This document shows, piece by piece, positions 10,893-59,584 of a stretch of DNA of 59,584 bases. The DNA is from a virus. The notes under the pieces are model-generated. The model did no database searches, was not told the DNA's origin, and saw nothing but the letters and a program-made list of their open reading frames with translations. The stretch is taken from positions 1 through 59,584 of the IMG/VR virus record IMGVR_UViG_3300027754_000102; one strand, given 5' to 3'. Each line of letters starts with the position of its first letter. The stretch's first letter is position 1. The translations under genes and the position numbers were made by a program.

Positions 10893-11876
10893 ATGGCATA
10901 TGTCAGCTTTAAAGAACTGGCTGGCAAATCTGGATCGGTCAATTCCAGTTTTCAACGTCAGTACACACGGCAATTTCGCATCATCACCGACGATGCGACG
11001 GCTGGTCCATTTTACGCCGGCAGTCATCCCAGCCTGCCGCTAATATTTAGCGTTTATCCAGACGATGCCAAAGCGTTTTGCGTGTCGTTAAGTCCTGTTC
11101 AAGACGGTGACAATCCGCTCGCGTGGACCGTAACCGCTCAATACGCTTACGCCATGGATGCTTGGGTTGGCGGAGGTGGTGGCGGAGGTGGCGGTGGTGG
11201 TGGCGGAATGACTGCCACCGGCAATCCGCAAATCGACACCCAGCAGAAAGGCCAGCCACCAGCCAGCAGGGTTTCCAATCCGCTTTCAAGACCAAGAGAC
11301 TACACATTCCAAACGATCAATGTCGGCCAACGTGTGGTTGAAAAAGATGTGGTCACAGACGAGCCAATCGTGAACACTGCTGGTGATCCTATCTCGCCAC
11401 CCTACATGATTGACATCCCAGCCATCGCCATCACCATTGGCCTAAACAGCACCAGTGCGCCGGGTGACGGCTGGGTTTCTGCACTGGGTAAAATTAACAC
11501 CAACACACTGACCATAGGCAGTTGGATAATCGCTGCCAAGCGGGCAAGACTGCGTGGGATTTCAGCAAATTTGGTCTACGAGGAAGGCCTTAGCTACTGG
11601 CGATGGTCAATCAATTTTGAAGTGCGTTACAGTTGGACTTGGGATTTGCGGTCGGTCGGACTGGAAGCCAAGCAATATGCTAGGGACGCTGCCGGCAACC
11701 AAACCACCGTGAAAGGTCCGATCAAAAAAAACGGCAAATACATCACTCAGCCTGTCGGATTAGATGCCCAAGGATTTGTAGCGGAGAACACCGAAGCGGC
11801 AGGAGTCTGGACCGATAACGCTGCGCAATTGTCTTTTGATGTGGTCGCATCAACAACCTTTCCGAGTCCGCTCTAA
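10893..11876 (+). CDS. Tail-tip structural protein with poly-glycine linker
   Basis: This 327-aa protein starts immediately after the tape measure stop, the position of a distal-tail or baseplate hub protein. It has two folded parts separated near residue 92 by an uninterrupted run of 13 glycines. The C-terminal part is Trp-rich (YWRWSINFEVRYSWTWD), suggesting a beta-sandwich. The protein at 51388-52464 has the same position in module B (similar length, KFRWYQVPLAWVQ region) and may be a distant relative. I know no named family. Confidence 0.6.
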   Translation: MAYVSFKELAGKSGSVNSSFQRQYTRQFRIITDDATAGPFYAGSHPSLPLIFSVYPDDAKAFCVSLSPVQDGDNPLAWTVTAQYAYAMDAWVGGGGGGGGGGGGGMTATGNPQIDTQQKGQPPASRVSNPLSRPRDYTFQTINVGQRVVEKDVVTDEPIVNTAGDPISPPYMIDIPAIAITIGLNSTSAPGDGWVSALGKINTNTLTIGSWIIAAKRARLRGISANLVYEEGLSYWRWSINFEVRYSWTWDLRSVGLEAKQYARDAAGNQTTVKGPIKKNGKYITQPVGLDAQGFVAENTEAAGVWTDNAAQLSFDVVASTTFPSPL

Positions 11877-12346: not shown

Positions 12347-13071
12347 TGCCAGCATCCGCAACGGCAATTTCTGAACCGTTTTCACCGACAACGGCGACGG
12401 TGTCTCAGCCGAGCGGAACGGCGACCGCTGGTTCTACTGGCGGCAGCATTATCAATTTGCAATCTACATATAGCATTGGGCCAACCGGTGGAGCATCTGG
12501 AACCAGTGGCGGCAGCACAACCCAAACGCTGTCTTGTTCTTCCTGCTGTTCTCCACTGGTGTATTATTTGCCAACATGGTTTAGCAGTTATGGCCTATGC
12601 CCAGGCGCTGTTGATAACACTGTGCCAGTAACACTAACCGCTACTTTTACTTTGTCTGGATATGGCGGTTACACTTTGGCTGAGATGTGTTTGCCAACAT
12701 CAGCAAGTGTAAATGTAATTGCTGACGATCCTTTAAGGCCTTCAAACCTTTACATTATCACACCATCAACAACATGCTCTTTGGTTTCACCACCAACTAC
12801 ACGTTTTAATGTCAAATCACCTTTTGCCAATCCATACGATTGGGTTTTTACGGCTGCATTTATTACAGCCCACCAATTGTTGTACACTCTTACTCTTTGC
12901 AATTGCTCCACAAGTTTTGCGCTAAATTTATTTAATTCGGCATTTTTAAATGCAAATTCAATGACTTTGTCTAGTAGCAGTTGCTCGCCGTTTTCGCTCA
13001 CATTTACTGGCGGCCAAATTTATCAGACTTACATTCGCAAAGGTTCATTCGACGTAACATTTACCCTATGA
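12346..13071 (+). CDS. Probable tail-tip adhesin, Cys-rich (split counterpart of 52913-54952)
   Basis: This 241-aa protein has a Thr/Ser/Gly-rich N-terminus (about 60 residues), then the motif TTQTLSCSSCCSPLVYYLP, which parallels TTKTLPCGCCFSCKCGP in the 679-aa module B protein, followed by a beta-rich domain with PGAVDNTVPVTLTATFTLSG (module B: PGAGDTSVPENLTVKFTFS). The C-terminal half is clearly more AT-rich than its neighbours, as often seen for exchanged receptor-binding domains. It lacks the long Gly/Pro repeats and the C-terminal Cys module of the B protein; the Cys module is the next gene here. Confidence 0.6.
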   Translation: MPASATAISEPFSPTTATVSQPSGTATAGSTGGSIINLQSTYSIGPTGGASGTSGGSTTQTLSCSSCCSPLVYYLPTWFSSYGLCPGAVDNTVPVTLTATFTLSGYGGYTLAEMCLPTSASVNVIADDPLRPSNLYIITPSTTCSLVSPPTTRFNVKSPFANPYDWVFTAAFITAHQLLYTLTLCNCSTSFALNLFNSAFLNANSMTLSSSSCSPFSLTFTGGQIYQTYIRKGSFDVTFTL

Positions 13072-13379
13072 AACCATGTCCACTTGAACCGACCACCTGC
13101 GAATGCCGGGTGTGCTACCTCTACCTCACCAACCCGGAATACAACCGACTCTGGGGCGGCACCGGCATTGATCCAGCATTTCGCAAGCTATGGATCACCC
13201 GAACCACCACGCCATGCGTTCACCTGGGCGAATTCATCGAGGATCCAGCAACCTGCGGGTGCGGCGTGGCAGTGTTGCGTTCGTGTGCTGTGCATGGCCA
13301 GTGCCGAAAAATCGGCCAGGCTAAATCCGGTGAGTCGGTTTGTTCGACCTGTCCCGACTGGATGGCAAAAGGTGTCTGA
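13068..13379 (+). CDS. Small Cys-rich protein (separate Cys module)
   Basis: This 103-aa protein starts at ATG 13068, overlapping the previous TGA. Its second half reads CVHLGEF..DPATCGCG..VLRSCAVHGQCRK and ends VCSTCPDW, the same order of cysteines as the C-terminus of the 679-aa protein in module B. The spacing looks like a zinc-ribbon or disulfide knuckle. I recall similar Cys modules in planctomycete proteins, a pointer to the host, but did not check it. A further CPLEP..CECRVCYLY cluster is at the N-terminus. Confidence 0.7.
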   Translation: MKPCPLEPTTCECRVCYLYLTNPEYNRLWGGTGIDPAFRKLWITRTTTPCVHLGEFIEDPATCGCGVAVLRSCAVHGQCRKIGQAKSGESVCSTCPDWMAKGV

Positions 13380-13406: not shown

Positions 13407-14078
13407 ATGACACCCGCACTCATACTCTTGTTGTTTTGCGATATTAAGTCCCCGCCAGAGGTGCGCACGCCGTGCAACCGATTGGCGCGCGTCGAAGTGG
13501 TTTCAACCGGCAAAAACACGATCCTGATTCCACCAGCCGGTGACTGTGACGCATTCCAAGAGGTTGCGTCTAATGGCAAACTATCATTCCGAGTGATCTG
13601 CTACTCACCAGGGAAATACCGACTCACATTCGTGACCGCTGCCGGTGATGTTCCCGAGTACGCCACCACCGATATAATCGCCGGTGATCTGCCTGCACCT
13701 GTGCCACCAGTGCCGCCAGTTCCAACACCTGACGATATAACCAAGGATCCGCTGTACCAAGCACTGGCCAGCATCGTTGGCGGTTTGCAGGAATCAGACC
13801 AACAGAACAGCCTGAAGACACTGGCCGAACTCTACCGGCAAGGCGAAGTCATGGCCGGCCAGCACGCAACGCTTGGCGCATGGACTGGCGCGCTTAGACT
13901 ACTCAGCCAGCAGGCCGGCCTTGGCAACAAGCTGATCACGGTCAGGCAGCGCATTGCGGACGAACTGTCCAGCGCACTGGGAACTGATCCGGCGGCCAAC
14001 CTGGCGGGGGGACTCGGCGCAAGATGTGCCGCGCAGTGCCGCCGGATCAGCCTAATCCTTAACACCTTGGCACGGTGA
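13407..14078 (+). CDS. Secreted-type Ig-like protein with proline linker (module A)
   Basis: This 223-aa protein opens with a short hydrophobic leader (MTPALILLLFCDIKSPPEV), then a beta-rich domain to about residue 88, a Pro/Val linker (PAPVPPVPPVPTPDD), and a helical C-terminal domain (YQALASIVGGLQESDQQN to the end). The module B protein at 54980-55684 has the same four parts (LLLVLSQDIKLPAEV leader, beta domain, PP linker, helices). It precedes the papain-like peptidase in both modules, suggesting a partner or substrate role. No named family is known to me. Confidence 0.65.
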   Translation: MTPALILLLFCDIKSPPEVRTPCNRLARVEVVSTGKNTILIPPAGDCDAFQEVASNGKLSFRVICYSPGKYRLTFVTAAGDVPEYATTDIIAGDLPAPVPPVPPVPTPDDITKDPLYQALASIVGGLQESDQQNSLKTLAELYRQGEVMAGQHATLGAWTGALRLLSQQAGLGNKLITVRQRIADELSSALGTDPAANLAGGLGARCAAQCRRISLILNTLAR

Positions 14079-14082
14079 AAAC

Positions 14083-14982
14083 ATGGCTGAGGTCGATGAG
14101 AATTTTGGTTGGGTCGAGGATCCCGCAGCGGTCGATGCGGTGGTTGCCGGCCTACCCATGCCAACATGGGGAGATACGCCAGCCAGCGCAGTGGATGAAG
14201 CCAGCCTGCCTGCCGAGGTGTTGGGATGGCAGGCATGGGCGAAGGCCAGCGGCACGGCATGGCCTGAACTGTCTCAGGGTTCTGTCGGCTCCTGCGTTTC
14301 GTTCGGAACCAGCCACGCGCTAATGCTCACGCAGGCCGGCGAGATCATCGCAGGTGATCCAGAGGAAACACGGATTCCCTGCATGGAAGCAATCTATGGT
14401 GGTTCACGCGTTGAGATCGGCGGTGGAAAAATATCCGGTGATGGTTCCATCGGCGCTTGGGCGGCAGAATGGGTGCGACGCTGGGGAGTAATAGCGCAGG
14501 GAATTTATGGCTCATACGATCTGACCAAATACGACCAGGCGCGTTGCCGGGACTGGGGCAAAAAAGGCGTACCGACTGAGATCGAGGACATAGCCAAAAA
14601 GCATCCAATCGGCAACTGCACACTGATCACATCGTTTTCAGATGCGGTCTCGGCACTTGGCCAAGGCTACGGTATTCAGGTCGCCAGTAACCGAGGATTC
14701 AGCCTGAAGCGCGACTCCGAAGGCTTTGCCGCACCGAGTGGTAGATGGGGCCACTCAATGTCGTTTATAGGCTACAGGAAAACCGGCAATCGACCGGGTT
14801 TGTTCATCGTCAATAGTTGGGGATTTAGCAGCACGACAGGTCCTAAATCACACCCAGACGCGCCGCCGAGCGGTTGGTGGGTGGATGCTGAGGTGGCGGA
14901 TGGAATGTTGAAACAACGGGACTCGTTCGCATTCTCAAAGTTCACCGGGTTCCCGGCTCGTTCCATTAACTGGCTGATCTGA
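14083..14982 (+). CDS. Papain-like cysteine peptidase (module A)
   Basis: This 299-aa protein carries a complete C1-type catalytic set: the oxyanion Gln and Cys in SQGSVGSCVSFG (Q65, C71, same 6-residue spacing as papain), His in RWGHSMSFIGY (H224) and Asn in FIVNSWG (N244). There is no obvious signal peptide or long propeptide. Gene order with an Ig-like protein before and a holin-like protein after is repeated in module B, so it is a conserved part of the tail-end cassette. It may be a virion-associated peptidase acting on the protein-rich host envelope, or a lysis enzyme; I cannot choose. Confidence 0.85.
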   Translation: MAEVDENFGWVEDPAAVDAVVAGLPMPTWGDTPASAVDEASLPAEVLGWQAWAKASGTAWPELSQGSVGSCVSFGTSHALMLTQAGEIIAGDPEETRIPCMEAIYGGSRVEIGGGKISGDGSIGAWAAEWVRRWGVIAQGIYGSYDLTKYDQARCRDWGKKGVPTEIEDIAKKHPIGNCTLITSFSDAVSALGQGYGIQVASNRGFSLKRDSEGFAAPSGRWGHSMSFIGYRKTGNRPGLFIVNSWGFSSTTGPKSHPDAPPSGWWVDAEVADGMLKQRDSFAFSKFTGFPARSINWLI

Positions 14983-14990
14983 GGACCGCC

Positions 14991-15251
14991 ATGGATGCCA
15001 TTCAATTCATCAGGGAGTTTGGTTTGCCAACCATGGGACTCTGTGTCGCCGGCTACGCGTTTTGGCAATGCTGTTCTTGGATTGCACGCGAGCTAATTGT
15101 TCCACTGCGTGATCGGCATTTTGCATTTCTGCATTCACTGGAAAGCACGCTTGCTGTCCTCGCTAAAACACAACAGCAACTTGGCACCGAGATCGAGCGC
15201 ATCACCGACATGATTCAAGGTCAACAGTTAAAAAAACAGGATAAAGAATAA
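14991..15251 (+). CDS. Holin-like single-pass membrane protein (module A)
   Basis: This 86-aa protein has one hydrophobic segment (FGLPTMGLCVAGYAFWQCCS, about residues 10-29), a short amphipathic stretch (ELIVPLRDRHFAFL) and a coiled-coil C-terminus ending basic/acidic. The module B relative at 56905-57177 keeps REFGLPTM and IVPLRDRHFAFL. This layout resembles BhlA-like holins. Following the peptidase, it could provide membrane passage or disruption. The holin call is an inference from topology. Confidence 0.6.
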   Translation: MDAIQFIREFGLPTMGLCVAGYAFWQCCSWIARELIVPLRDRHFAFLHSLESTLAVLAKTQQQLGTEIERITDMIQGQQLKKQDKE

Positions 15252-15670
15252 TGGCGAGTCTGGTGTACAACTCGTTTTATTACGACTCGTTCACGGGTTC
15301 GATTAACTGCGCCTCAAACACATTTAAATGCTTGCTTGTAACCAGTAGTTACACCGCTTATAAAGCGCACGATAAGCGCGACGACATTACCAACGAGGTT
15401 TCGGGAACAGGCTACAGCGCAGGCGGAAACGCTGCCACCTGCACAGTTGCCGCAGTGGACAACACCAACAACGATGTTGAAATAACATTCAGCATCGCAA
15501 GCTGGACCACCAGCACGATCACTGCACGCGGCGCGGTGATCTACAGGAGCAGAGGTGGCGCATCGAGCGCCGACGAACTGGTCTGCTACATCGATTTTGG
15601 CGCGGACATTAGCAGCAGCGCGGGAACTTTTGCAGTCACGATGAATGATCCAATTAAGGTCCAGAACTAG
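15251..15670 (+). CDS. Virion-associated protein, paralog 1
   Basis: This 139-aa protein overlaps the previous stop (TAATG) and is a paralog of the next gene. Shared blocks are MASLVYNS, DITNEVSGTGYSAGG and NNDVEITFSIASWT. I recall this family beside tail fibres in many phages without an assigned role. Its predicted content is mostly beta, consistent with a small structural or decoration protein. Confidence 0.65.
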   Translation: MASLVYNSFYYDSFTGSINCASNTFKCLLVTSSYTAYKAHDKRDDITNEVSGTGYSAGGNAATCTVAAVDNTNNDVEITFSIASWTTSTITARGAVIYRSRGGASSADELVCYIDFGADISSSAGTFAVTMNDPIKVQN

Positions 15671-15678
15671 GAGAAGCC

Positions 15679-16098
15679 ATGGCATCACTTGTTTACAATT
15701 CCGCCATACGGGATGCTTCGGTTGGCAATATCGATTTCGACAGCGATACATTCAAGATGATGCTGGTTACCAGCACATACACTGCTTCCAAGAGCCACGC
15801 AAAACGCTCCGACATTACCAACGAAGTTACAGGCACAGGCTACACGGCTGGCGGCAATGCTGCTGCCTGCACCGTGGCAGCAACCGACAATGTCAATAAC
15901 GATGTTGAAATAACCTTTAGCATCACGAGTTGGACCAGCGCAACCATTACGGCACGGGCAGGTGTGATTTACAAATCTCGCGGCGGTGCTTCATCTGCTG
16001 ATGAGTTGGTTGGTTATGTGGATTTCACGAGCGATACTACCAGCACCAATGGTACATTTGCGGTTACTATCTCTAGCCCACTGAAATTCCAAAACTAG
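15679..16098 (+). CDS. Virion-associated protein, paralog 2
   Basis: This 139-aa paralog has a good ribosome site (AGGAGAAGCC). It is closer to the module B protein at 57184-57603 (NIDFDSDTF, SKSHAKRS, VTGTGYTAGGNA, SWTSATITAR shared) than to its own neighbour. It marks the left end of the gapless 2.4-kb homology between modules. Function unknown, probably structural. Confidence 0.65.
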   Translation: MASLVYNSAIRDASVGNIDFDSDTFKMMLVTSTYTASKSHAKRSDITNEVTGTGYTAGGNAAACTVAATDNVNNDVEITFSITSWTSATITARAGVIYKSRGGASSADELVGYVDFTSDTTSTNGTFAVTISSPLKFQN

Positions 16099-16107
16099 GG
16101 ATAAAAC

Positions 16108-17916
16108 ATGGCGCTCATTAGAGCTGACCGCGTCAAGGAATCATCTACTAGCACCGGCACGGGGGTATTTACCCTGGCCGGTGCTGATTCCACTTACCGG
16201 ACATTCGCGTCTGTTTGTGCGGTGGCTGACACGGTTTACTATGTGATTGCTCACAGGACTAGCAATGAGTGGGAGGTTGGGCTCGGCACCTATAGCGCCA
16301 CCAACACGCTGACCAGGACAACAGTTCACGCAAGCAGTAACGCCAACGCGGCTGTGGCATTCAGCACCGGCACTAAAGACGTACTGCTGGCGCTGACGAA
16401 AGCACAGCTAGAAACGTACGCCACTCTAGCTGGCACCGAGACGCTGACGAACAAGACTATCAGCGGCGCAAACAACACCATCACCAATGTTTCACTAACT
16501 ACTGGCGTGACCGGCACTCTGCCACTAGCCAACGGTGGTACTGGTGCAACTACGCAGACAACAGCAGCTACTAGCCTGATCGGTAACCCTCCAAATGATG
16601 GATTGCAGTACACGCTGGCATCCAAGAAAACTAGCGGTACGCCATCGTTCTACTGGGTCGATTCGACTGGTTACGCTCCGACATTGGATTTGTTGTTTGC
16701 TGCGGATAAGACTCTCACGCCTTACTCTGGACCTACGCCAAGTTTTAGCAGGGCATCGACTGGCACATTAACTAATTCATCCGGCGTACTAACCACAGCA
16801 GCAGTAAACGCACCACGCTTCGACCATGTATACAACGGAACAAGCTGGGTGAGTAAAGGGCTGTTGGTCGAGGAGCAGAGGACGAATAGCGTTTTCTATT
16901 CTGAGCAGTTTAACTTGTGGGCAAAATCAAGATGCAATGTCACAGCTAATTCAATTACAGCTCCTGACGGAAACACCACAGCCGACTTATTGACGACATC
17001 TATTGCAGATGCCGTCAACGAAGCATATGTATATTCAAACAATGCACCATCTGGCCAGACTACTGTGTCTTGCAGCATTTTTGTTAAAAAAGGTAATTGC
17101 GATTATTTAAGGCTACAGATTTATGATTCAGCATTTTCGAATGGTGTTATTTCAAAAGTCAACATCAGCACCGGAGCAATAATTTCGACAAGCTCAATAG
17201 GCACAGGTTGGTCTGTGACTTCAGCAGATATTTCCAACTATGGATCTGGATGGTATCGAGTTACGCTAAACGCCAGCAAGCCATCTGGAAGCACGACAAG
17301 TATTTTATTTAGCTATTCATCGCTGGTGGCAGTAAATGCGGTTTTAGGCGATACTGTTTACCTATGGGGAGCCCAGATTGAAACCGGATCATCATTCCCT
17401 ACAAGCTACATTCCAACCACCACAGCAGCGGTGACAAGGTCAGCAGATGTTTGTCAGATTACTGGGACGGATTTTAGTGGGTTTTGGTATGCGAGTGAGG
17501 GAAGTTTAGTGGTTCAATATGATCGCCTTAATGTTCCCACTTCAAACGGTGTTCTTTTTGCAGCCTCGAAAGTTTCATCACCCTTACAGAACCTAATTTA
17601 CAATTTTGCAAGTAGTGGGAATGAAAACCTTTCAGTTTACAACGCCAACATTGATCAAGCCACATTTGCTATAGGATCTATTCCTTCAGCTGGCACATCT
17701 GCAAAAATTGGATTCTGTTACAAGGTTAACGATTTCGCTGGAACACTAAATGGTTCTGCTGTGGTCACGGATACTTCAGGTTCTGTTACGGCTGTAGAGC
17801 AAATTGGTATCGGTTACATTCACGGCACTACAGCAAATTACAACGGCCACATCTCCCGACTGAGCTACTACCCAGTCCGCATCCCAAACGCCACCCTACA
17901 GGTACTATCAACATGA
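16108..17916 (+). CDS. Tail fibre / receptor-binding protein (module A)
   Basis: This 602-aa protein has an N-terminal attachment domain (MALIRADRVKESSTSTGTG), the fibre signatures ETLTNKTI and LPLANGGTGATT near residues 110-150, and a C-terminal beta-rich domain from about 250 (GLLVEEQRTNSVFYSEQFNL, then GTGWSVTSADISNYGSGWYR), resembling carbohydrate-binding jelly rolls. The C-terminal coding region is AT-rich. From about residue 345 on it is identical to the module B fibre. It probably binds the host surface. Confidence 0.85.
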   Translation: MALIRADRVKESSTSTGTGVFTLAGADSTYRTFASVCAVADTVYYVIAHRTSNEWEVGLGTYSATNTLTRTTVHASSNANAAVAFSTGTKDVLLALTKAQLETYATLAGTETLTNKTISGANNTITNVSLTTGVTGTLPLANGGTGATTQTTAATSLIGNPPNDGLQYTLASKKTSGTPSFYWVDSTGYAPTLDLLFAADKTLTPYSGPTPSFSRASTGTLTNSSGVLTTAAVNAPRFDHVYNGTSWVSKGLLVEEQRTNSVFYSEQFNLWAKSRCNVTANSITAPDGNTTADLLTTSIADAVNEAYVYSNNAPSGQTTVSCSIFVKKGNCDYLRLQIYDSAFSNGVISKVNISTGAIISTSSIGTGWSVTSADISNYGSGWYRVTLNASKPSGSTTSILFSYSSLVAVNAVLGDTVYLWGAQIETGSSFPTSYIPTTTAAVTRSADVCQITGTDFSGFWYASEGSLVVQYDRLNVPTSNGVLFAASKVSSPLQNLIYNFASSGNENLSVYNANIDQATFAIGSIPSAGTSAKIGFCYKVNDFAGTLNGSAVVTDTSGSVTAVEQIGIGYIHGTTANYNGHISRLSYYPVRIPNATLQVLST

Positions 17917-18248
17917 TCGACCTACTTCTAAAGTTCCAATCGCAAGAGCAGGCTGGTCTAATCGGAGAGCAACTTGGCTACACTACCCGTGATCCTGAAA
18001 CGGGTGAGTTTCAAACAACGCAAGCCACATTGACGCTAGCAATCTGCGTAATAGGTGTGCATTACTATCCAGACGGAACAACCAGCGAAGGGCCGAACGG
18101 TGAGCAGGTTCCTAATCTGGTAGCAGATAATCAGTACTGGGTGATGGTTCGCTCTCTAGTGGACATGGTTATTCCTCCGGAGATTCAGCCGTTTATTGTT
18201 GCGCGTAATCCAGAAGACCCGACGATTCCAAACCAGAAATGGGCCTAA
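17913..18248 (+). CDS. Small protein after the fibre, possible fibre chaperone
   Basis: This 111-aa protein overlaps the fibre stop by four bases. It has no recognised domain; position directly after a receptor-binding fibre and length suggest a fibre assembly chaperone or tip protein. The first 167 bases are identical to the truncated copy at the right window edge (59418-59584). Two stop codons in a row end the gene. Confidence 0.55.
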   Translation: MIDLLLKFQSQEQAGLIGEQLGYTTRDPETGEFQTTQATLTLAICVIGVHYYPDGTTSEGPNGEQVPNLVADNQYWVMVRSLVDMVIPPEIQPFIVARNPEDPTIPNQKWA

Positions 18249-30582: not shown

Positions 30583-30830
30583 GCGACCGCAGAAGTAAAT
30601 TGCCCATCAACATTGATGAAATTAAAAAAGTGCTAATCGTTGATAACGACTTGCCTAGCAGGCTTCGATGGGCGCCCGGCTACGGTGGATTTGGCGGCAA
30701 GGCTGCTGGCCATTTGAATCAGTTGGGCTATTGGACAGTGCGAGTAAAAAAACGTTTATTTTATGCCCATCGAATTGTCAAAGCACTAACGACGGGCAAA
30801 GACCCCGGGCAAAGTATGGTGCGTCGTTGA
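30579..30830 (+). pseudogene. Truncated HNH/AP2-type endonuclease remnant
   Basis: This 83-aa product has the pattern that precedes the HNH motif in phage homing endonucleases: RLRWAPGYGGFGGKAAGHLN, QLGYWTVRVKKRLFYAHRIV, ALTTGKDPGQ. The expected DH-dGN nuclease motif is missing because the frame stops 30 bases later. It may still be translated and couples to the TGT-like gene by a TTGA overlap. I read it as the relic of an inserted homing gene. Confidence 0.6.
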
Positions 30831-31588
30831 TCCATTACCACGGGTTGCCAATACATCCTGACCACGCCTGCGCTTTAATCTTGCAAGCAGGCCACGCAAT
30901 GGTTTCGTTTGCGCATCCCGAACAGTTAGGATTGGCGGCAGAGATTTGCCAGACGTTTGTGCTGGACAACGGGGCATTCTCGGCGTGGAAATCAGGTAAA
31001 CCAGTCGATGATTGGACACCGTATTTGGAATGGGCGCTTGATGCGTTTGCGCATCCCGGCTGCGATTGGGTCACTATTCCCGATAAGATCGACGGCAATG
31101 AAAGCGACAACGATAGCCTGGCAAAATGGTTTATAGGCAAATGGCGGGTCTACCGCAAAGACGAACTTTCTGCTTGTGTACCGGTTTGGCACATGCACGA
31201 ATCGTTTGAAAGACTACAACGTTTGGCAGCCATGTTCCATCGGATCGCTATCGGTTCATCGGGGGAATACTCGGAAATAGGCACCATAGACTGGTGGCAC
31301 AGGATCACAGCAGCAATTCAAAACATATCGGCGAATGGCCGGCCGCATGTCAAACTTCACGGAATGAGGATGCTAGATGTGCGGATATTTACTAGACTAC
31401 CACTATCGAGCGCGGACAGCACAAACATTGCTCGAAATGTTGGCATAGACAAGCGGTGGACTGGCTCATATCAACCGCCAACTAAGGCTGGGCGCGGCCA
31501 AATTTTAAGGCAGCGAATCGAAGCAAGTAACTCTGCACCCGTATTGGTCGAATTTTCGCCAACCAAGCAGAAGGAGTTATTCGCATGA
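30827..31588 (+). CDS. TGT/DpdA-like TIM-barrel protein
   Basis: The start is TTG 30827 (overlap TTGA), giving 253 aa beginning (M)IHYHGLPIHPDHA. Motifs are FVLDNGAFSAWKSG (D47), DWVTIPDKID (D86), PVWHMHESFERL, RIAIGSSGEYS and LHGMRMLDVRIFTRLPLSSADST (D197). This resembles tRNA-guanine transglycosylase-fold phage proteins related to DpdA, which exchange guanine for 7-deazaguanines in DNA; the zinc cysteines of bacterial Tgt are absent. No QueC/D/E/F-type genes lie in the window, so the base donor would come from the host. Activity is inferred. Confidence 0.6.
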   Translation: MIHYHGLPIHPDHACALILQAGHAMVSFAHPEQLGLAAEICQTFVLDNGAFSAWKSGKPVDDWTPYLEWALDAFAHPGCDWVTIPDKIDGNESDNDSLAKWFIGKWRVYRKDELSACVPVWHMHESFERLQRLAAMFHRIAIGSSGEYSEIGTIDWWHRITAAIQNISANGRPHVKLHGMRMLDVRIFTRLPLSSADSTNIARNVGIDKRWTGSYQPPTKAGRGQILRQRIEASNSAPVLVEFSPTKQKELFA

Positions 31589-31764
31589 GCGACAAAAACG
31601 CAGATCACACGCTGTCGGAACTGCAGGAGGCTAGGGCGGAGGTGGACCGGCTGCGGCGCCTGATCCGTAACCAGACCGGCGTCATGGTGCAGGGGCAGAC
31701 GTTTTGGCCCGACTGGGTGATGAATGAGCTGGGGCCGGATCAGACAATGCCGGGGGGCGAATGA
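31585..31764 (+). CDS. Small coiled-coil protein between TGT-like and PP-loop genes
   Basis: A 59-aa frame overlapping both neighbours by four bases (ATGA at each end). Residues 8-28 form a charged helix (LSELQEARAEVDRLRRLIRN), followed by a Trp-containing tail. It has a good site (AAGGAGTTATTCGC). Possibly a subunit or adaptor of the flanking enzymes; function unknown. Confidence 0.6.
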   Translation: MSDKNADHTLSELQEARAEVDRLRRLIRNQTGVMVQGQTFWPDWVMNELGPDQTMPGGE

Positions 31765-32591
31765 TGGGCAACCCGTACGAGATTGAGCGCCCTGGCATAA
31801 TTTCATTTTCTGGTGGAGCCACCAGTGGGTTTATGCTTTGGCAGATACTTCGGTCCTACGGTGGCAAACTGCCAGACGATATTAAAATTGTTTTTGCCAA
31901 TACGGGGCTAGAACATGAAAAGACGCTTGAGTTTATTCGCAATGTTGAAACGCAGTGGGGCGTCAAAGTTCATTGGCTGGAGTACCGAGCAAAACGAACT
32001 TTTGACGAGGTCACATACGAGACAGCCAGCCGGAGCGGAGAGCCGTTTGACATTTTGATTCAGGAGCGGCAGTACCTGCCTAATCCGGTTGCCCGGTTTT
32101 GCACCGTCGAATTGAAAATTCGGACCATTGATAGGTGGGCAGAAAACCTTGGGTGGGACGATGGGCACACCGAGGTGGTCGGGCTCAGATACGACGAGCC
32201 GCATCGGGTAACGCGTATAAAGGCAAACAGTAGGCGCAATGAGGTTGAGTGCCCAATGTTTATGGCAAGGCACACGCTGGAGGATGTTGAACAATTTTGG
32301 CAAAAAAACACATTCCGGCTGGAGATTCCCCGCTTATTGGGAAACTGTGCTGGGTGCTTTTTAAAGGGCCGGGACAAGATTCAGCGAATAGCTAAGGATC
32401 ATCCTAATTTGCTGGAATGGTGGGCCAAACGGGAAGAAGTGGCAATTGGCTGGAAGGAAGACGGAACAGCCAAAATGGCCCATTTTCGGTCTGACCGTCC
32501 AAGCTATCGGGGACTGATCAATATGGCCCAATCGCAACAGGAATTTCTTTTTACTGATGACGACACATTACCGTGTCATTGCACAGATTGA
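31761..32591 (+). CDS. PP-loop / PAPS-reductase-family protein
   Basis: This 276-aa protein has the PP-loop IISFSGGATSGFM (residues 13-25), IVFANTGLEHEKTLEFI, PVARFCTVELKIR and GNCAGCFLKG, the layout of phage PAPS-reductase-like N-type ATP pyrophosphatases (DndC relatives in the broad sense). Cys pairs in the C-terminal half could hold a metal or Fe-S cluster. Such enzymes activate a substrate with ATP, often for sulfur transfer. Together with the TGT-like gene it may form a nucleic-acid modification unit. Confidence 0.75.
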   Translation: MMGNPYEIERPGIISFSGGATSGFMLWQILRSYGGKLPDDIKIVFANTGLEHEKTLEFIRNVETQWGVKVHWLEYRAKRTFDEVTYETASRSGEPFDILIQERQYLPNPVARFCTVELKIRTIDRWAENLGWDDGHTEVVGLRYDEPHRVTRIKANSRRNEVECPMFMARHTLEDVEQFWQKNTFRLEIPRLLGNCAGCFLKGRDKIQRIAKDHPNLLEWWAKREEVAIGWKEDGTAKMAHFRSDRPSYRGLINMAQSQQEFLFTDDDTLPCHCTD

Positions 32592-32792: not shown

Positions 32793-33120
32793 ACAACGCC
32801 TAGCCCGCTCAATCCAGTTCCGCCACCTGCTGGCCGCCCTGTTTGACGATGACACGCCATGGGGCGAATCCGTGGCCCTGCAGGTGCTGGCCGACCACTT
32901 AGAGCAGGACGGCCGGGCTGACCTGGCCGACATCGTCCGGGGCCGGTTCCAGACTGCGGCGTCACAGCTCCAGGTCACCCAGCACCGCACCCACATTGAC
33001 ACTGCCCCGCGGTTTGCGGCGGGTGACCGTGGTCATTTAACAAACAGCCGGAGCACCCGAGCTATCACCCACGTGATTGAGCTGCAGGGCACCGTGGTCC
33101 TATCGGAGGCTAGCGCCTGA
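32713..33120 (+). CDS. TIGR02996-like protein
   Basis: In this 135-aa protein, residues 38-78 (HLLAALFDDDTPWGESVALQ, then VLADHLEQDGRADLADIVRG) resemble the TIGR02996 domain 'L..I..dP.Dd.pRLv.ADwLee.Gd..rAefIR', a family largely confined to planctomycetes and some myxobacteria as far as I recall. This supports the host inference and suggests capture of a host gene. Function unknown. Confidence 0.5.
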   Translation: MGTELTPPPIQRPSNHQVPTTMTSADKQRLARSIQFRHLLAALFDDDTPWGESVALQVLADHLEQDGRADLADIVRGRFQTAASQLQVTQHRTHIDTAPRFAAGDRGHLTNSRSTRAITHVIELQGTVVLSEASA

Positions 33121-33557
33121 TCGACCTGCCGGACTGGAGGCAACAGACCTCATTTGACTGCGGCCTAACGGCCACGCGCCTCGTCCTCCGGGGCGTCCGG
33201 CGGCGACCTCGGCCCGACCTGCGACAGATCCTCGGCACCAGCAGCCACGACGGCACCGACCCCCGCCAGATTGAAACCGTTTTACGCCAACACGACCTTG
33301 GCGTCGTGGCCGGGGAAATGCACGGCGACGACCTCGCCTATCTGACCGGCCGTGGGTGCCCTGTGGCGTGCCTAGTGCAGTTCGATGGCGTTGGCCATTG
33401 GGTGGTCGTTTGCCATGCCGATGGCCGACAGGTCCGCTACCAAGACCCCGCCACGGGCCCACAGTCGGTTGGCTGGCCGCGATGGCTGGCCGGCTGGCGA
33501 GACGTCGATCGGCTGGGCGCCGTTTACCGCCAGTGGGGGGTCGCCGCATGGAGATGA
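33117..33557 (+). CDS. C39-like papain-fold peptidase with non-ATG start
   Basis: The frame is open from a TAG at 33111 and encodes QQTSFDCGLTATRLVLRG (Cys near residue 15), VACLVQFDGVGHWVVVC (His near 99) and VRYQDPATGP (Asp near 112), a C39-like catalytic set. The first usual start, GTG 33306, is beyond the Cys, so I place the start at CTG 33117, which overlaps the previous stop (CTGA), giving 146 aa. Its substrate is unknown; C39 enzymes cut at Gly-Gly leaders. Confidence 0.6.
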   Translation: MIDLPDWRQQTSFDCGLTATRLVLRGVRRRPRPDLRQILGTSSHDGTDPRQIETVLRQHDLGVVAGEMHGDDLAYLTGRGCPVACLVQFDGVGHWVVVCHADGRQVRYQDPATGPQSVGWPRWLAGWRDVDRLGAVYRQWGVAAWR

Positions 33558-33946
33558 TCCTGCTACCGCTACCGCCATCAGCTAACAACCTGACCCGCAA
33601 GGCGCCCAGGCGCGGGGGCAAATATTTTCCCACCAAGGCCTATACCGACTGGACCACCGAGGCTAACGCCATGGCCATCGAGGCCGGCCTGATCCCGCGG
33701 CGGTCGGCACCATTTGAGCGCCCTGTCCACGTCCGGGTCGAGATCCTGCCGGGCAAGGGTCTGAGATTGGACCGCGACGCCGACAACATGGCAAAAGCCG
33801 TGCAGGACTGGCTGGTCAGATGGGGCTTTTTGACTGACGACAGCCTGCGGCACGTCCACGGTTGCCATGTAGTCTATAGGCCACAGGAGGCCAGCCCGAC
33901 GGGGCGGGCCGTGGTGCGAGTGTCATTTACTGAGGAGGAGACCTAA
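33548..33946 (+). CDS. RusA-family Holliday junction resolvase
   Basis: This 132-aa protein starts at ATG 33548 with LLPLPPSANNLTRKAPRRGG and carries the RusA motif LDRDADNMAKAVQDWLVRWG followed by FLTDDSL (D77, D79, K83, D97/D98 as candidates). RusA cuts four-way junctions made in recombination and replication, and can trim branched DNA before packaging. It is the last gene before the late module and overlaps the C39-like gene. Confidence 0.9.
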   Translation: MEMILLPLPPSANNLTRKAPRRGGKYFPTKAYTDWTTEANAMAIEAGLIPRRSAPFERPVHVRVEILPGKGLRLDRDADNMAKAVQDWLVRWGFLTDDSLRHVHGCHVVYRPQEASPTGRAVVRVSFTEEET

Positions 33947-52466: not shown

Positions 52467-52913
52467 ATGCGTTTCACGTCCGCCACCCCCGGCTTTAATC
52501 TGTCCAACGACGGTCAGGGCGCCCTGGTCCTGCAGGCCCCGCCAGGCTTTTTTGTCGCCAAGATCACCGGGTCATTCACTGCAGCGGGCGCCACCTATTA
52601 CACCTGGGCCGAGCAGGAGCCACAGGAAGACGGCACCGGCTACCGCAACATACCCAACGGCAAGACCGGCACCAGCACGGCTAACTGGGCCCGTGAACTC
52701 AACGGCGCCACATCGGTGGCGATTAACACAATCGTGCTGATGCGGCCGGTCATCGTCACCAAGGCCGGCGGGGCGGGCAAGACGCAACTGCATGAGTTTG
52801 CGGTGGCTGGTGCGCCCGTTTCGCAGGCCGTCGTCACCGCGGTCACCTGCTCCAACGGCAACCTGACGGTGACCACTAAAACCATCACCGTGCCAGGCAT
52901 GGTGGTGACCTAA
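52467..52913 (+). CDS. Tail-tip protein, homologue of 11876-12346
   Basis: This 148-aa protein ends VTAVTCSNGNLTVTTKTI, the block shared with module A, and has YYTWAEQEPQEDGTGYRNIP in the middle. It shares a base with the start of the large adhesin gene (TAATG). Probable tail-tip component. Confidence 0.6.
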   Translation: MRFTSATPGFNLSNDGQGALVLQAPPGFFVAKITGSFTAAGATYYTWAEQEPQEDGTGYRNIPNGKTGTSTANWARELNGATSVAINTIVLMRPVIVTKAGGAGKTQLHEFAVAGAPVSQAVVTAVTCSNGNLTVTTKTITVPGMVVT

Positions 52914-54979: not shown

Positions 54980-55684
54980 ATGCTAACCCTGCTGCTGCTC
55001 GTCCTGTCCCAAGACATCAAGCTCCCCGCCGAGGTCACCGCTCAGCCTGGCACCTTTGTGTCCCTGGTCGCCGAGACCAAGGGCGAAACCGTCAAATTCA
55101 CCGCCATCGACCCGGGCGTCTCCCTGTTCCCTGCTGAACTGCTCGCCAATAAAAAATCCACCGTGGCCGTCGCCATGTCCGCGGGCCGCTACCGGGTGCT
55201 TGTCTGGTCAGCGATTGACGGCAAGCCCACCGACGCCGTGCAGGTCACTCTGGTGGTCGGCAATGCCCCGGGACCGGTTCCACCATCACCACCGGCGCCA
55301 CCACCTCCGGCACCACCACCAGTACCACCCACGCCACCCGCCCCGGTCGATGACCTGGCGCAGATCCTCGCCGCCCTTTACGGCGCCTTGAACGAGGACG
55401 GCAAGGCCGCCCACGTCAAGGCATTGGCTGGTGTTTTTCGTGAGGCCGGCGTGGCCTCTAACGACAACCGATACCAGACGGTTGGCCAACTGTTCGGGGC
55501 CATTCGCCAGCAGTCCTTGCAGGCCCTGCCCAACACCGCCCTAACGTCCATGCGCGAGCGCCTTGGGCTGGTTCTAACCCAAGCTCTTGGCAACGACCCC
55601 GCGGCCCCGCTGACGCCCAGCAGCCGGGCCAAGGCCTTTGAGACGTTCAGCCGGATTGCCAGCATCCTGGAGGCCCTGCGATGA
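54980..55684 (+). CDS. Secreted-type Ig-like protein with proline linker (module B)
   Basis: This 234-aa protein has a signal-like start (MLTLLLLVLSQDIKLPAEV), a beta-rich domain (about 12-95), a long Pro linker (PPSPPAPPPPAPPPVPPTPP) and a helical C-terminal domain (LAQILAALYGALNEDGKAAH to the end). It is homologous in layout to 13407-14078. It overlaps the peptidase gene. Strong site GCAGGAGGCCCCG. The DIKLPAEV segment may follow signal cleavage. Confidence 0.65.
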   Translation: MLTLLLLVLSQDIKLPAEVTAQPGTFVSLVAETKGETVKFTAIDPGVSLFPAELLANKKSTVAVAMSAGRYRVLVWSAIDGKPTDAVQVTLVVGNAPGPVPPSPPAPPPPAPPPVPPTPPAPVDDLAQILAALYGALNEDGKAAHVKALAGVFREAGVASNDNRYQTVGQLFGAIRQQSLQALPNTALTSMRERLGLVLTQALGNDPAAPLTPSSRAKAFETFSRIASILEALR

Positions 55685-56577
55685 GCGAATACGCAGCAGG
55701 CTGGATAGATGACCCCGCCGAGGTCGAGATCGTGGCGGGCCAACAGCCCTACTACACGTTCAGCGAAACCCCGGCCGGCGCCACAGCGACAGGCACTGAC
55801 CATGCCTACCTGTGGCTGGCCTACGAGCTGGCCACCGGCAAAAAATATCCTAACCGTGATCAGGGTAGCTACGGCACCTGTGTCTCGTTCGGGACTGCGG
55901 CGGCAGTCGAGGTCAGCCAGGCATGCGAGTCTATCGCCGGCGACCCCGAAGAGGTCCGAGACCTCGCCACCGAAATAATCTACGCTGGCAGCCGGGTCGA
56001 AATCGGCGGCGGCCGGTTTCGTTCCGACGGGTCAATCGGCGCATGGGCCGCCGACTGGGTAAAAAAATATGGTGTGCTGGACCGGGCCATCTTCGGCAAC
56101 GGCAAGTACGACCTCCGCGTCTACTCAGGCGCCAAGGCCCGCCAGTGGGGCGCACCAGGTGCCGGCGTGCCGGATGACCTGGAGCCTGAGGCGCGCAAGT
56201 ACCCCGTCAAGACGATCACCAAGGTGACGACGTTCGACGACGCTTGCAAGGCCCTGACTGCCGGCTACGGCATTTCAGTTTCCAGTTCGGTCGGCTTTCA
56301 AATGGCCCGCGATCAGGACGGATTTTGTAAGGCCGGCCCGCGGTGGGACCACTGCATGGCCATTCTCGGTTTTCAGCTCGGCAAGCGCCCCGGCGGCTTC
56401 ATCCAAAACAGTTGGGGCCCGAGCGCCCACACCGGGCCACTAGGCGCAGGCGACCCGCCGACGGGTGGATTCTGGGCCGACGCTGAAGCGGTCGAAAAAA
56501 TGCTAAAGGCTGGCGATTCTTGGGCGTTTTCATCCGTGGTCGGATTCCCGGCCCGGACCATCCCGTGGTTTATCTGA
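55681..56577 (+). CDS. Papain-like cysteine peptidase (module B)
   Basis: This 298-aa protein has DQGSYGTCVSFG (Q61, C67), RWDHCMAILGF (H224) and FIQNSWGPS (N243), the same triad at almost the same positions as the module A enzyme, with further shared blocks IAGDPEEVRDLATEIIYAGS and RVEIGGGRFRSDGSIGAWAA. Conservation next to unrelated capsid genes shows the enzyme belongs to a mobile tail-end cassette. Virion-associated or lysis role. Confidence 0.85.
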   Translation: MSEYAAGWIDDPAEVEIVAGQQPYYTFSETPAGATATGTDHAYLWLAYELATGKKYPNRDQGSYGTCVSFGTAAAVEVSQACESIAGDPEEVRDLATEIIYAGSRVEIGGGRFRSDGSIGAWAADWVKKYGVLDRAIFGNGKYDLRVYSGAKARQWGAPGAGVPDDLEPEARKYPVKTITKVTTFDDACKALTAGYGISVSSSVGFQMARDQDGFCKAGPRWDHCMAILGFQLGKRPGGFIQNSWGPSAHTGPLGAGDPPTGGFWADAEAVEKMLKAGDSWAFSSVVGFPARTIPWFI

Positions 56578-56587
56578 GGTCCTCAAA

Positions 56588-56905
56588 ATGGCACTACCTC
56601 CCTACCCGACCGACTTCCCCTCCGAGGCCTTTTTACTGGTGCTCGACAAGGCCCGCGGCCGTAACGACGTCACCGGGGCTGACCTGGCGCACGCTGGCTG
56701 GTGCGTCGCAGGCTACGCCCTGCAGCAGACCCTTGGCGGTGGGCCGACCATCCGCGGGGCCGAAAACCTGGAGCAGGCCGGATGGAGTGACGAGCAGGTA
56801 ATTCAGGGCGCCATCGACGCCAACGACGGCGCCAAGGGCATGCTGTTCCCCTGGGTGCTCGTGATCCGTGTCGCCGTGAAGCTAATCCTGGAGGCCGTCC
56901 TCTAA
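56588..56905 (+). CDS. Hypothetical protein between peptidase and holin-like gene
   Basis: This 105-aa protein is absent from module A. It has a helical body (DLAHAGWCVAGYALQQTLGG; NLEQAGWSDEQVIQGAIDAN) and a hydrophobic C-terminus (GMLFPWVLVIRVAVKLILEA) that could enter the membrane. Adjacent to a holin-like gene, so a second membrane lysis factor is possible. Confidence 0.5.
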   Translation: MALPPYPTDFPSEAFLLVLDKARGRNDVTGADLAHAGWCVAGYALQQTLGGGPTIRGAENLEQAGWSDEQVIQGAIDANDGAKGMLFPWVLVIRVAVKLILEAVL

Positions 56906-57177
56906 TGGACCCGCTACAATTCGCCCGCGAGTTTGGCCTGCCCACGATGGCCCTCGTCGTCACCGGCTACGGCATCTGGCAGGTCTGCGCATGGATTGCC
57001 AAAGAGTTAATCGTGCCCCTGCGGGATCGCCATTTTGCGTTTTTGCTGAGTATCGAGCAGACGCTTAAAGCGCTGCAGGAGACGCAGCAAAGCATCGTGA
57101 AAACTCAGGAAAACATGGTTTCTGAAATCGAACGGGTCAGCAGTTTGATCCGTTGCACTGCCACCACCAAGGAGTAA
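56905..57177 (+). CDS. Holin-like single-pass membrane protein (module B)
   Basis: This 90-aa homologue of 14991-15251 has one hydrophobic segment (FGLPTMALVVTGYGIWQVCA), the conserved KELIVPLRDRHFAFL and a coiled-coil C-terminus (LKALQETQQSIVKTQENMVS). It shares a base with the previous stop (TAATG). Holin function is inferred from topology. Confidence 0.6.
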   Translation: MDPLQFAREFGLPTMALVVTGYGIWQVCAWIAKELIVPLRDRHFAFLLSIEQTLKALQETQQSIVKTQENMVSEIERVSSLIRCTATTKE

Positions 57178-57183
57178 TGACCA

Positions 57184-57603
57184 ATGGCTTCTCTTGTTTA
57201 CAATTCGTGCATCCGCGACGCTGTCGTCGGCAATATTGATTTTGACACCGACACCTTCAAGGCCATGCTGGTCACGTCGACCTACTCGGCCAGCAAAAGC
57301 CACGCAAAACGCTCGCCTGACATCACTAACGAGGTGACTGGCACCGGCTACACAGCGGGCGGTAATGCTTGCTCGGTATCCGTGGCCGCCGTCGACAACA
57401 CCAACAACGATGTTGAAATCTCGTTCACAATCACATCGTGGACCAGCGCCACGATCACCGCCCGGGCCGCCGTCATCTACAAGTCCACCGGGACTGCTTC
57501 GGCTGATCCGCTCGTTGGCTACGTCGATTTTGGTTCGGACGTATCAAGTACCAACGGCACGTTTGCGGTGACTGTGAGCAGCCCATTGAAATTCCAAAAC
57601 TAG
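57184..57603 (+). CDS. Virion-associated protein (module B)
   Basis: This 139-aa homologue of the pair at 15251 and 15679 occurs once here. It shares MASLVYNS, NIDFDTDTF, TNEVTGTGYTAGGNA and SWTSATITARA with 15679-16098. Structural role presumed. It opens the right copy of the 2.4-kb direct repeat. Confidence 0.65.
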   Translation: MASLVYNSCIRDAVVGNIDFDTDTFKAMLVTSTYSASKSHAKRSPDITNEVTGTGYTAGGNACSVSVAAVDNTNNDVEISFTITSWTSATITARAAVIYKSTGTASADPLVGYVDFGSDVSSTNGTFAVTVSSPLKFQN

Positions 57604-57612
57604 GAATAACCC

Positions 57613-59421: not shown

Positions 59422-59584
59422 TCGACCTACTTCTAAAGTTCCAATCGCAAGAGCAGGCTGGTCTAATCGGAGAGCAACTTGGCTACACTACCCGTGATCC
59501 TGAAACGGGTGAGTTTCAAACAACGCAAGCCACATTGACGCTAGCAATCTGCGTAATAGGTGTGCATTACTATCCAGACGGAAC
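59418..59584 (+). CDS. Small protein after the fibre, cut by the window edge
   Basis: The first 55 codons match 17913-18079 exactly by eye. The gene overlaps the fibre stop and is truncated by the end of the window, not by mutation. Confidence 0.6.
   Translation, partial: MIDLLLKFQSQEQAGLIGEQLGYTTRDPETGEFQTTQATLTLAICVIGVHYYPDG

What the first reader, a model, noticed from the sequence alone, without database searches (positions are those of the whole stretch)
13407..15251. Conserved tail-end cassette: Ig-like secreted protein, papain-like peptidase, holin-like protein
The order is kept in both modules (13407-15251 and 54980-57177) although head genes are unrelated. The peptidases have full Gln-Cys-His-Asn sets. 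I know no described phage lysis or entry system based on a papain-like enzyme with such a partner. Planctomycetes have an unusual, protein-rich envelope, so a protease could replace or help a peptidoglycan hydrolase; no classical endolysin is seen in the window. This is the best candidate for an undescribed system.
Basis: partly seen in the sequence, partly recalled or inferred. Interest (0 to 1): 0.75.

Follow-up and report, generated by a model that had tools for sequence, protein, structure and literature searches.

The report
Papain-like lysis cassette in planctomycete phages
Many phages of planctomycete bacteria carry, in place of a recognisable cell-wall-cutting enzyme, a papain-like protease locked to an exported Ig-like partner and small membrane-protein genes, which looks like a borrowed host envelope protease used to break the cell open, although this has not been tested at the bench.

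Summary
The cassette is real. Both copies encode an exported Ig-plus-helical protein, a papain-like (C1) peptidase and a one-TM coiled-coil protein; a fourth small gene (X, 56588-56905) was missed. Peptidase catalytic residues are intact in 142-146 of 146 relatives, and the predicted fold matches xylellain and pro-papain (Z about 20).

The claim that one genome keeps two modules is probably an assembly artefact: 940 bp at 17140-18079 recur identically at the contig end, and bases 18079-59584 match a circular 41.5 kb phage. The window looks like two phages joined. The conservation is therefore between phages. The partner precedes the peptidase in about 100 of 116 loci. All 19 testable contigs found through an unrelated tail gene carry the set.

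New: planctomycete chromosomes carry the same partner-peptidase pair with an N-terminal membrane anchor. Phage peptidases never have it. Most sit beside the membrane genes instead, and no locus has both. Four classical endolysin families were absent from 20 contigs.

Best reading: a host envelope papain turned into an endolysin-like, membrane-gene-dependent lysis enzyme (0.55). Its substrate, lysis itself and the partner's role are untested. Planctomycetes do have peptidoglycan, so 'replaces peptidoglycan hydrolysis because the wall is protein' is not supported.

The parts
13407..14078 (+). IG, module 1: exported partner (short signal-like hydrophobic start, Ig-like domain about aa 18-92, Pro-rich linker, 5-helix C-terminal domain)
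   Evidence: model pLDDT 82 but pTM 0.52, so relative domain placement is unsure; Ig matches at Z 8-10; homologue upstream of the peptidase in about 100 of 116 loci
14083..14982 (+). PEP, module 1: papain-like (C1) cysteine peptidase, no signal peptide or anchor, conserved N-terminal GW..D...V segment in a pro-region-like position
   Evidence: Q65/C71/H224/N244; AF2 pLDDT 84.7, pTM 0.88; xylellain Z 20.9, pro-papain Z 20.1; Pfam Peptidase_C1 in 6 of 12 relatives, best 8.5e-8
14991..15251 (+). TM, module 1: one TM segment plus coiled coil, 86 aa (holin- or spanin-like architecture)
   Evidence: family in 57 of 116 loci; only weak PHROG hits to Rz-like spanin and holin families among its relatives
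54980..55684 (+). IG, module 2
55681..56577 (+). PEP, module 2 (start overlaps the IG stop by 4 bp; C67 nucleophile)
   Evidence: overlap of 4 bp in 49 of 103 loci
56588..56905 (+).
   Evidence: family in 62 of 116 loci, 54 of them directly after PEP
56905..57177 (+). TM, module 2: 90 aa, 59% identical to module 1
17140..18079 (.). 940 bp exact copy of 58645-59584 (the contig end): probable joining point of two phage genomes

Best explanation
The cassette is most likely the host-lysis module of temperate phages of planctomycetes (Gemmataceae and relatives). The papain-like enzyme is an endolysin-like proteinase derived from, or exchanged with, a host envelope protease. Proposed course: late in infection the peptidase builds up in the cytoplasm (inferred from its lack of any export signal), held inactive by a pro-region-like N-terminal segment (inferred from the alignment to zymogens and the conserved GW..D...V motif). 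The Ig-helical partner is exported through Sec to the periplasm (inferred from its signal-like start). The one-TM coiled-coil protein, perhaps with X, opens or destabilises the inner membrane at a set time (inferred from architecture and context). The peptidase then reaches the envelope, meets the partner, and cuts envelope proteins or peptidoglycan peptides until the cell breaks. Shown here: the gene linkage, the intact catalytic residues, the fold by prediction, the absence of a Pfam-recognised peptidoglycan hydrolase in a complete phage, and that the enzyme has its own membrane anchor (host chromosomes) or sits near TM or X genes (most phage and phage-like loci), never both. Not shown: any activity, the substrate, lysis, and what the partner does.
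For: Linkage: IG directly upstream in 99 of 116 loci, often with a 4-bp overlap. Contigs found by an unrelated tail gene: 19 of 19 with at least 6 kb downstream carry PEP, IG and TM. Contigs newly found by the TM motif and long enough to judge also carry IG and PEP. Enzyme: C and H in 146 of 146, N in 142 and Q in 143; C1 papain fold; Peptidase_C1. No classical endolysin: complete B-type phage, all families shown; other cluster representatives and an A-type phage; 20 contigs. Host versus phage: chromosomal copies sit in an IG-PEP operon among housekeeping genes with an N-terminal anchor. 42 anchored copies have no TM/X nearby, 0 of 87 scored viral copies are anchored, 77 of those have TM/X within 5 kb, and 12 unanchored copies in bacterial genomes also sit by TM/X. 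After removing relatives above 70% identity the table is 17:0 against 12:32, Fisher p about 1e-7. Host and phage forms intermix in the tree (7 label changes in the best tree, at least 4 forced), which suggests repeated exchange. Some loci scored as having neither feature hold an unrelated TM-coiled-coil gene next door (L016, L107).
Against: No experiment. TM has only weak PHROG hits, and X has none better than 0.019. The Fisher test ignores relatedness; the paired test on the tree has too few pairs (0 in the same direction, up to 3 opposite, p 0.25-1). Anchor versus TM/X largely restates chromosome versus phage, and phage virion proteins would lack anchors too. The position at the tail end also suits a virion role. 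A C39-like peptidase ORF exists in 3 of 20 contigs and in the window. Planctomycete walls contain peptidoglycan, so a proteinase alone may not suffice unless it cuts stem peptides.
Confidence: 0.55

Rival explanations
1. Virion-associated or entry protease: PEP is a tail component that digests envelope protein during DNA delivery, comparable in place to the NlpC/P60-type tail-tip enzymes of lambda-like phages (own knowledge). IG would be a tail-associated Ig-like protein.
For: Genes lie directly after tail genes and before the 139- and 602-aa tail proteins. PEP has no signal peptide. Ig-like domains are common in tails, and the lambda tube protein domain is among the IG matches.
Against: IG has a signal-like hydrophobic start in 92 of 100 loci scored, unusual for a virion part assembled in the cytoplasm. 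The same IG-PEP pair exists in chromosomes with an anchored PEP and no tail genes. The pair sits at different places relative to the tail genes in different phages, usually with TM or X beside it.
Confidence: 0.2
2. Host-modifying function other than lysis: the pair alters the lysogen's or infected cell's envelope (superinfection exclusion, S-layer or outer-protein turnover).
For: The phages carry integrases. The same pair is a host chromosomal operon in many Gemmataceae (35 of 95 genomes have the peptidase). Cwp84, an S-layer-associated cysteine protease, is among the fold matches (Z 17.9).
Against: The set is present in 19 of 19 testable contigs chosen without it, in the late gene block and as regular as a core gene; such accessory genes are usually patchy. 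Phage copies lack the anchor that an enzyme acting before lysis would need.
Confidence: 0.15
3. IG is an inhibitor of PEP (as chagasin-type Ig-fold proteins inhibit papain-like enzymes), so the pair is a protease-inhibitor safety pair used in lysis timing or against early activity. This can hold together with the lysis reading.
For: Ig-like fold plus a nearly obligate neighbouring C1 peptidase; inhibitor genes adjacent to cysteine protease genes are known in bacteria (own knowledge: staphopain/staphostatin).
Against: Chagasin was not among the listed fold matches, which does not exclude it. IG is exported whereas phage PEP is not. The Ig domain is missing in some partners while the helical domain stays (L139, L140, L070).
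Confidence: 0.15
4. The finding is an assembly artefact with no biology: a duplicated module in a chimeric contig.
For: The window itself is very probably chimeric.
Against: Each module occurs alone in many independent contigs from other samples and in bacterial genomes.
Confidence: 0.02

Closest known systems
Peptidase family C1 (Pfam PF00112; papain, cathepsins, bacterial xylellain 3OIS)
   Same: Q-C-H-N set, GxxGxC and NSWG motifs, whole fold (Z 20.9 to xylellain, 237 aligned, rmsd 3.3), N-terminal segment placed like a pro-region
   Different: Sequence identity about 15%; the two window copies give no Pfam hit; sits in phage genomes with an Ig partner and membrane-protein genes
Holin-endolysin lysis cassettes of tailed phages
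   Same: Small TM gene(s) next to a soluble wall-active candidate enzyme without export signal, in the late gene block after tail genes
   Different: Enzyme is a C1 proteinase rather than a recognised peptidoglycan hydrolase; an exported Ig-helical partner is nearly always present; holin function of TM/X untested
Mycobacteriophage lysin A N5 domain (papain-family peptidase in an endolysin; PMC3314691)
   Same: Papain-superfamily peptidase proposed to act in phage lysis
   Different: There it is one domain of mostly modular enzymes that usually also hold an amidase or glycosidase; here it stands alone, is C1-like, and has a partner gene
Host planctomycete IG-PEP operon (this work, e.g. L050 in Limnoglobus roseus)
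   Same: Homologous IG and PEP in the same order
   Different: PEP has an N-terminal membrane anchor, no TM/X genes nearby, and often a third small secreted gene (clusters 57/67); housekeeping neighbours
Cwp84, S-layer-associated cysteine protease (4CI7)
   Same: Bacterial envelope C1-type protease, fold match Z 17.9
   Different: Exported by the cell and used in surface-layer processing (own knowledge); not a phage protein, no Ig-helical partner known to me

Membership tests
Peptidase family C1 (papain) | Catalytic Cys-His-Asn with oxyanion Gln in papain order | tested here: met
   C and H 146/146, N 142/146, Q 143/146
Peptidase family C1 (papain) | Papain fold | tested here: met
   Foldseek E 1.5e-9; VIA Z 20.9 to xylellain, on a predicted model
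Peptidase family C1 (papain) | Match to the curated profile PF00112 | tested here: inconclusive
   6 of 12 family members match (best 8.5e-8), the two window copies do not
Peptidase family C1 (papain) | Proteolytic activity | not testable with these tools
   Needs purified enzyme
Phage holin-endolysin cassette | Soluble enzyme without own export signal in the phage | tested here: met
   0 of 87 scored viral PEPs have an N-terminal TM, against 42 anchored host copies; hydropathy test only
Phage holin-endolysin cassette | Adjacent small TM protein acting as holin | tested here: inconclusive
   TM gene present and linked; only weak PHROG similarity to holin and spanin families; function not tested
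Phage holin-endolysin cassette | Enzyme degrades peptidoglycan | not testable with these tools
   Substrate unknown
Phage holin-endolysin cassette | No other lysin in the genome | tested here: inconclusive
   No classical family found, but a C39-like peptidase ORF in 3 of 20 contigs; not every family or fold was tested
Rz/Rz1 spanins | Inner-membrane coiled-coil subunit plus small outer-membrane lipoprotein | tested here: inconclusive
   TM is a TM plus coiled coil; one relative hits Rz-like families weakly (1.2e-3); a lipobox-like motif is in only 6 of 100 IG starts scored
Chagasin-type inhibitors (I42) | Chagasin fold and motifs binding C1 peptidases | tested here: inconclusive
   Ig-like fold, but chagasin not among listed matches, which does not exclude it; motifs not seen by eye

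The most novel reading that the evidence does not exclude
A whole group of planctomycete phages lyses its hosts with a C1 papain-type proteinase as the main lysin, taken from a host envelope protease by dropping its membrane anchor and pairing it with membrane-opening proteins, and working with an exported Ig-helical cofactor: a lysis system whose enzyme is a true proteinase with a dedicated periplasmic partner.
Probability: 0.35. Interest if true: 0.85.

Novelty: new variant of a known kind. Interest (0 to 1): 0.62.

Why it matters
How phages break planctomycete cells is, as far as the searched open-access library shows, undescribed (no paper found). If right, the cassette gives a concrete, testable lysis module for these phages, an unusual lysin class, and a clean case of one enzyme family switching between an anchored host form and an unanchored phage form that travels with membrane-protein genes. 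It also points to an uncharacterised envelope protease operon in about a third of the Gemmataceae genomes searched.

Tried and rejected
- Two copies within one genome as evidence of constraint: rejected, because the contig is probably chimeric.
- Searching the phage collection by tblastn for PEP: no match in 50,697 records, so there is no annotated relative to borrow from.
- Cassettes in which TM occurs with a different lysin (a replacement test): the additional TM-motif contigs long enough to judge all had PEP, so this test gave no answer.
- Chagasin as the nearest fold of IG: not listed; not excluded.
- C39-like ORF as the general lysin: only 3 of 20 contigs carry it, so it cannot be the shared lysin, though it may help in some.
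- Prohead maturation role for PEP: considered unlikely; the A-type phage has its own S78 prohead protease and PEP lies at the tail end.
- Phylogenetically independent pairs test: too few pairs to reach significance.
- Literature: no paper on planctomycete phage lysis or a C1 lysis enzyme was found; subscription journals are not covered.

Full report
WHAT IS THERE. Module 1: IG 13407-14078, peptidase (PEP) 14083-14982, TM 14991-15251. Module 2: IG 54980-55684, PEP 55681-56577, a further gene X 56588-56905, TM 56905-57177. PEPs are 50% identical, TMs 59%, and IGs are related through the C-terminal half. Neither PEP nor IG of the window has a Pfam or PHROG match that means anything.

THE WINDOW IS PROBABLY TWO PHAGES. 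15679-18079 repeats as 57184-59584; the last 940 bp are identical and end exactly at the contig end. 59584-18079 leaves 41,505 bases. The relative G001 is 41,533 bases with 87-bp overlapping ends, and its sequence follows window 19197 through 57605 around the circle, continuing from window 52573 to its own first bases. Apart from a short copy of the 139-aa tail gene, nothing of window 1-17 kb is in it. L005, 99.99% identical to module 1, stops at window 17032. All 18 other near-complete contigs have a single PEP; only the window has two. I read the window as the 3' part of an A-type phage joined through a shared tail gene to a complete B-type phage. Without reads this is inference.

CONSERVATION. 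Scans gave at least 159 viral relatives (80 kept) and 33 loci in bacterial genomes. IG was found in 104 ORFs of 116 loci, and in 99 it is directly upstream of PEP; the stop and start overlap by 4 bp in 49 of 103. X directly follows PEP in 54 loci, and TM is in 57. Two baits that do not use PEP give the same set. A TM motif scan added new contigs: L195, L197, L201, L209, L212 and L216 carry TM, IG and PEP; L217 ends just after TM, and in L199 no TM ORF was called. The tail gene at 10893-11876 found 57 contigs; of the 19 with at least 6 kb downstream all 19 have PEP. Hosts by record title are nearly all Planctomycetota.

THE ENZYME. Across 146 aligned sequences the nucleophile Cys and the His never vary; Asn is kept in 142 and the oxyanion Gln in 143. 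AF2 gives pLDDT 84.7, pTM 0.88. Foldseek and VIA place it with C1 peptidases, xylellain first (E 1.5e-9; Z 20.9, rmsd 3.3, 237 aligned), followed by zymogens such as pro-papain, in which the first residues of the model lie in the propeptide region. The invariant G9, W10, D13 and V17 fall in that segment, so I infer a built-in pro-region; the first ten residues are poorly predicted. Pfam Peptidase_C1 matches 6 of 12 family members. Related phage enzymes are annotated Peptidase_C1 in BFVD, so C1 peptidases in phages are known as annotations.

THE PARTNER AND SMALL GENES. The IG model has an Ig-like sandwich (18-92) and five helices (108-222) (pTM 0.52, so domain placement is unsure). Nearest Ig matches are generic (lambda tube domain, S-layer and filamin domains). 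A signal-like hydrophobic stretch starts 92 of 100 scored. In some loci the Ig domain is replaced or absent while the helical part stays (L070, L139, L140), so the helical domain is the conserved core. TM relatives show only weak PHROG similarity to spanin, holin and unknown families, and X to one unknown family at 0.019.

HOST AND PHAGE FORMS. In planctomycete chromosomes the IG-PEP pair forms an operon among housekeeping genes (L050 Limnoglobus roseus, L064, L071), sometimes with a small secreted third gene. There PEP begins with a membrane anchor. Scored by hydropathy, 42 anchored copies have no TM/X gene within 5 kb; none of 87 scored viral copies is anchored and 77 have TM/X; 12 unanchored copies in bacterial genomes also have TM/X; 17 copies have neither feature. 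The bacterial loci of two searches overlap, so these raw counts hold some duplicates. After reduction at 70% identity: anchored 17 without and 0 with TM/X, unanchored 12 without and 32 with, Fisher p about 1e-7. Relatedness is not corrected in that figure: the tree needs 7 changes between forms (at least 4 forced), and the pair test has no power. Some loci scored as having neither feature carry unrelated genes of the same TM-coiled-coil build next to the pair (L016, L107). 35 of 95 genomes of the Limnoglobus family carry PEP, up to four copies.

NO CLASSICAL LYSIN. All 22 Pfam families in the B-type phage are listed and none is a peptidoglycan hydrolase; likewise the other cluster representatives and an A-type phage. 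Amidase_2, Phage_lysozyme, SLT and CHAP are absent from 20 contigs. A C39-like ORF occurs in three contigs and in the window at about 33118-33564, next to RusA.

MECHANISM. The simplest account of these facts is an endolysin-like use of a host envelope papain: the host exports it with its own anchor; the phage drops the anchor, keeps the exported partner and adds membrane-protein genes. Release through TM/X, self-inhibition by the N-terminal segment and a partner role in placing or switching on the enzyme are inferences. The substrate may be envelope protein or peptidoglycan peptides: Gemmata, Planctomyces and Rhodopirellula have lysozyme-sensitive peptidoglycan or cells (PMC4432640), and a papain-superfamily domain is proposed in mycobacteriophage lysins (PMC3314691). 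An entry role and a non-lysis envelope role remain possible.

NOVELTY. Works like: a holin-endolysin cassette. Member of: peptidase family C1 (residues and fold met, profile match partial, activity untested). Membership among lysis cassettes is undecided because wall degradation and holin function cannot be tested here. I file it as a new variant of a known kind.

Noticed in passing
17140-18079 and 58645-59584: 940 bp exact repeat reaching the contig end; the contig is probably a join of the 3' part of one phage with a complete circularly permuted second phage (18079-59584).
   Followed up: yes
L050, L064, L071, L059 and loci L274-L303: Chromosomal IG-PEP operons with an anchored PEP, sometimes with a third small secreted gene (clusters 57/67); PEP is in 35 of 95 genomes of the Limnoglobus family, up to four copies on one chromosome: an uncharacterised planctomycete envelope protease system.
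   Followed up: partly
about 33118-33564 (+): Peptidase_C39-like ORF (QQTSFDCG...GHW...DPATG) next to RusA in the replication region; also in G001, G006 and G026. Second papain-clan enzyme in some of these phages.
   Followed up: partly
12981-13379 and the C-terminal part of 52913-54952: Conserved Cys-rich segment (CVHLG...CGCG...C..HG.CR...C..C) just upstream of the cassette in many relatives, also at the end of large tail-region proteins; no Pfam match for the protein 52913-54952.
   Followed up: no
15251-15670, 15679-16098, 57184-57603: Tandem and dispersed paralogues of a 139-aa protein (phrog_644, unknown function) directly after the TM gene.
   Followed up: no
30668-31588 and 31761-32591: Window proteins include PHROG matches to queuine tRNA-ribosyltransferase (phrog_887) and PAPS reductase (phrog_424); assigned to these two ORFs by eye only.
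   Followed up: no
L047 (MAG labelled Bacteroidales) and L048 (MAG labelled Kuenenia): Both genomes are returned inside the family of Limnoglobus roseus by the genome search (G041, G040), so their record titles look wrong.
   Followed up: no
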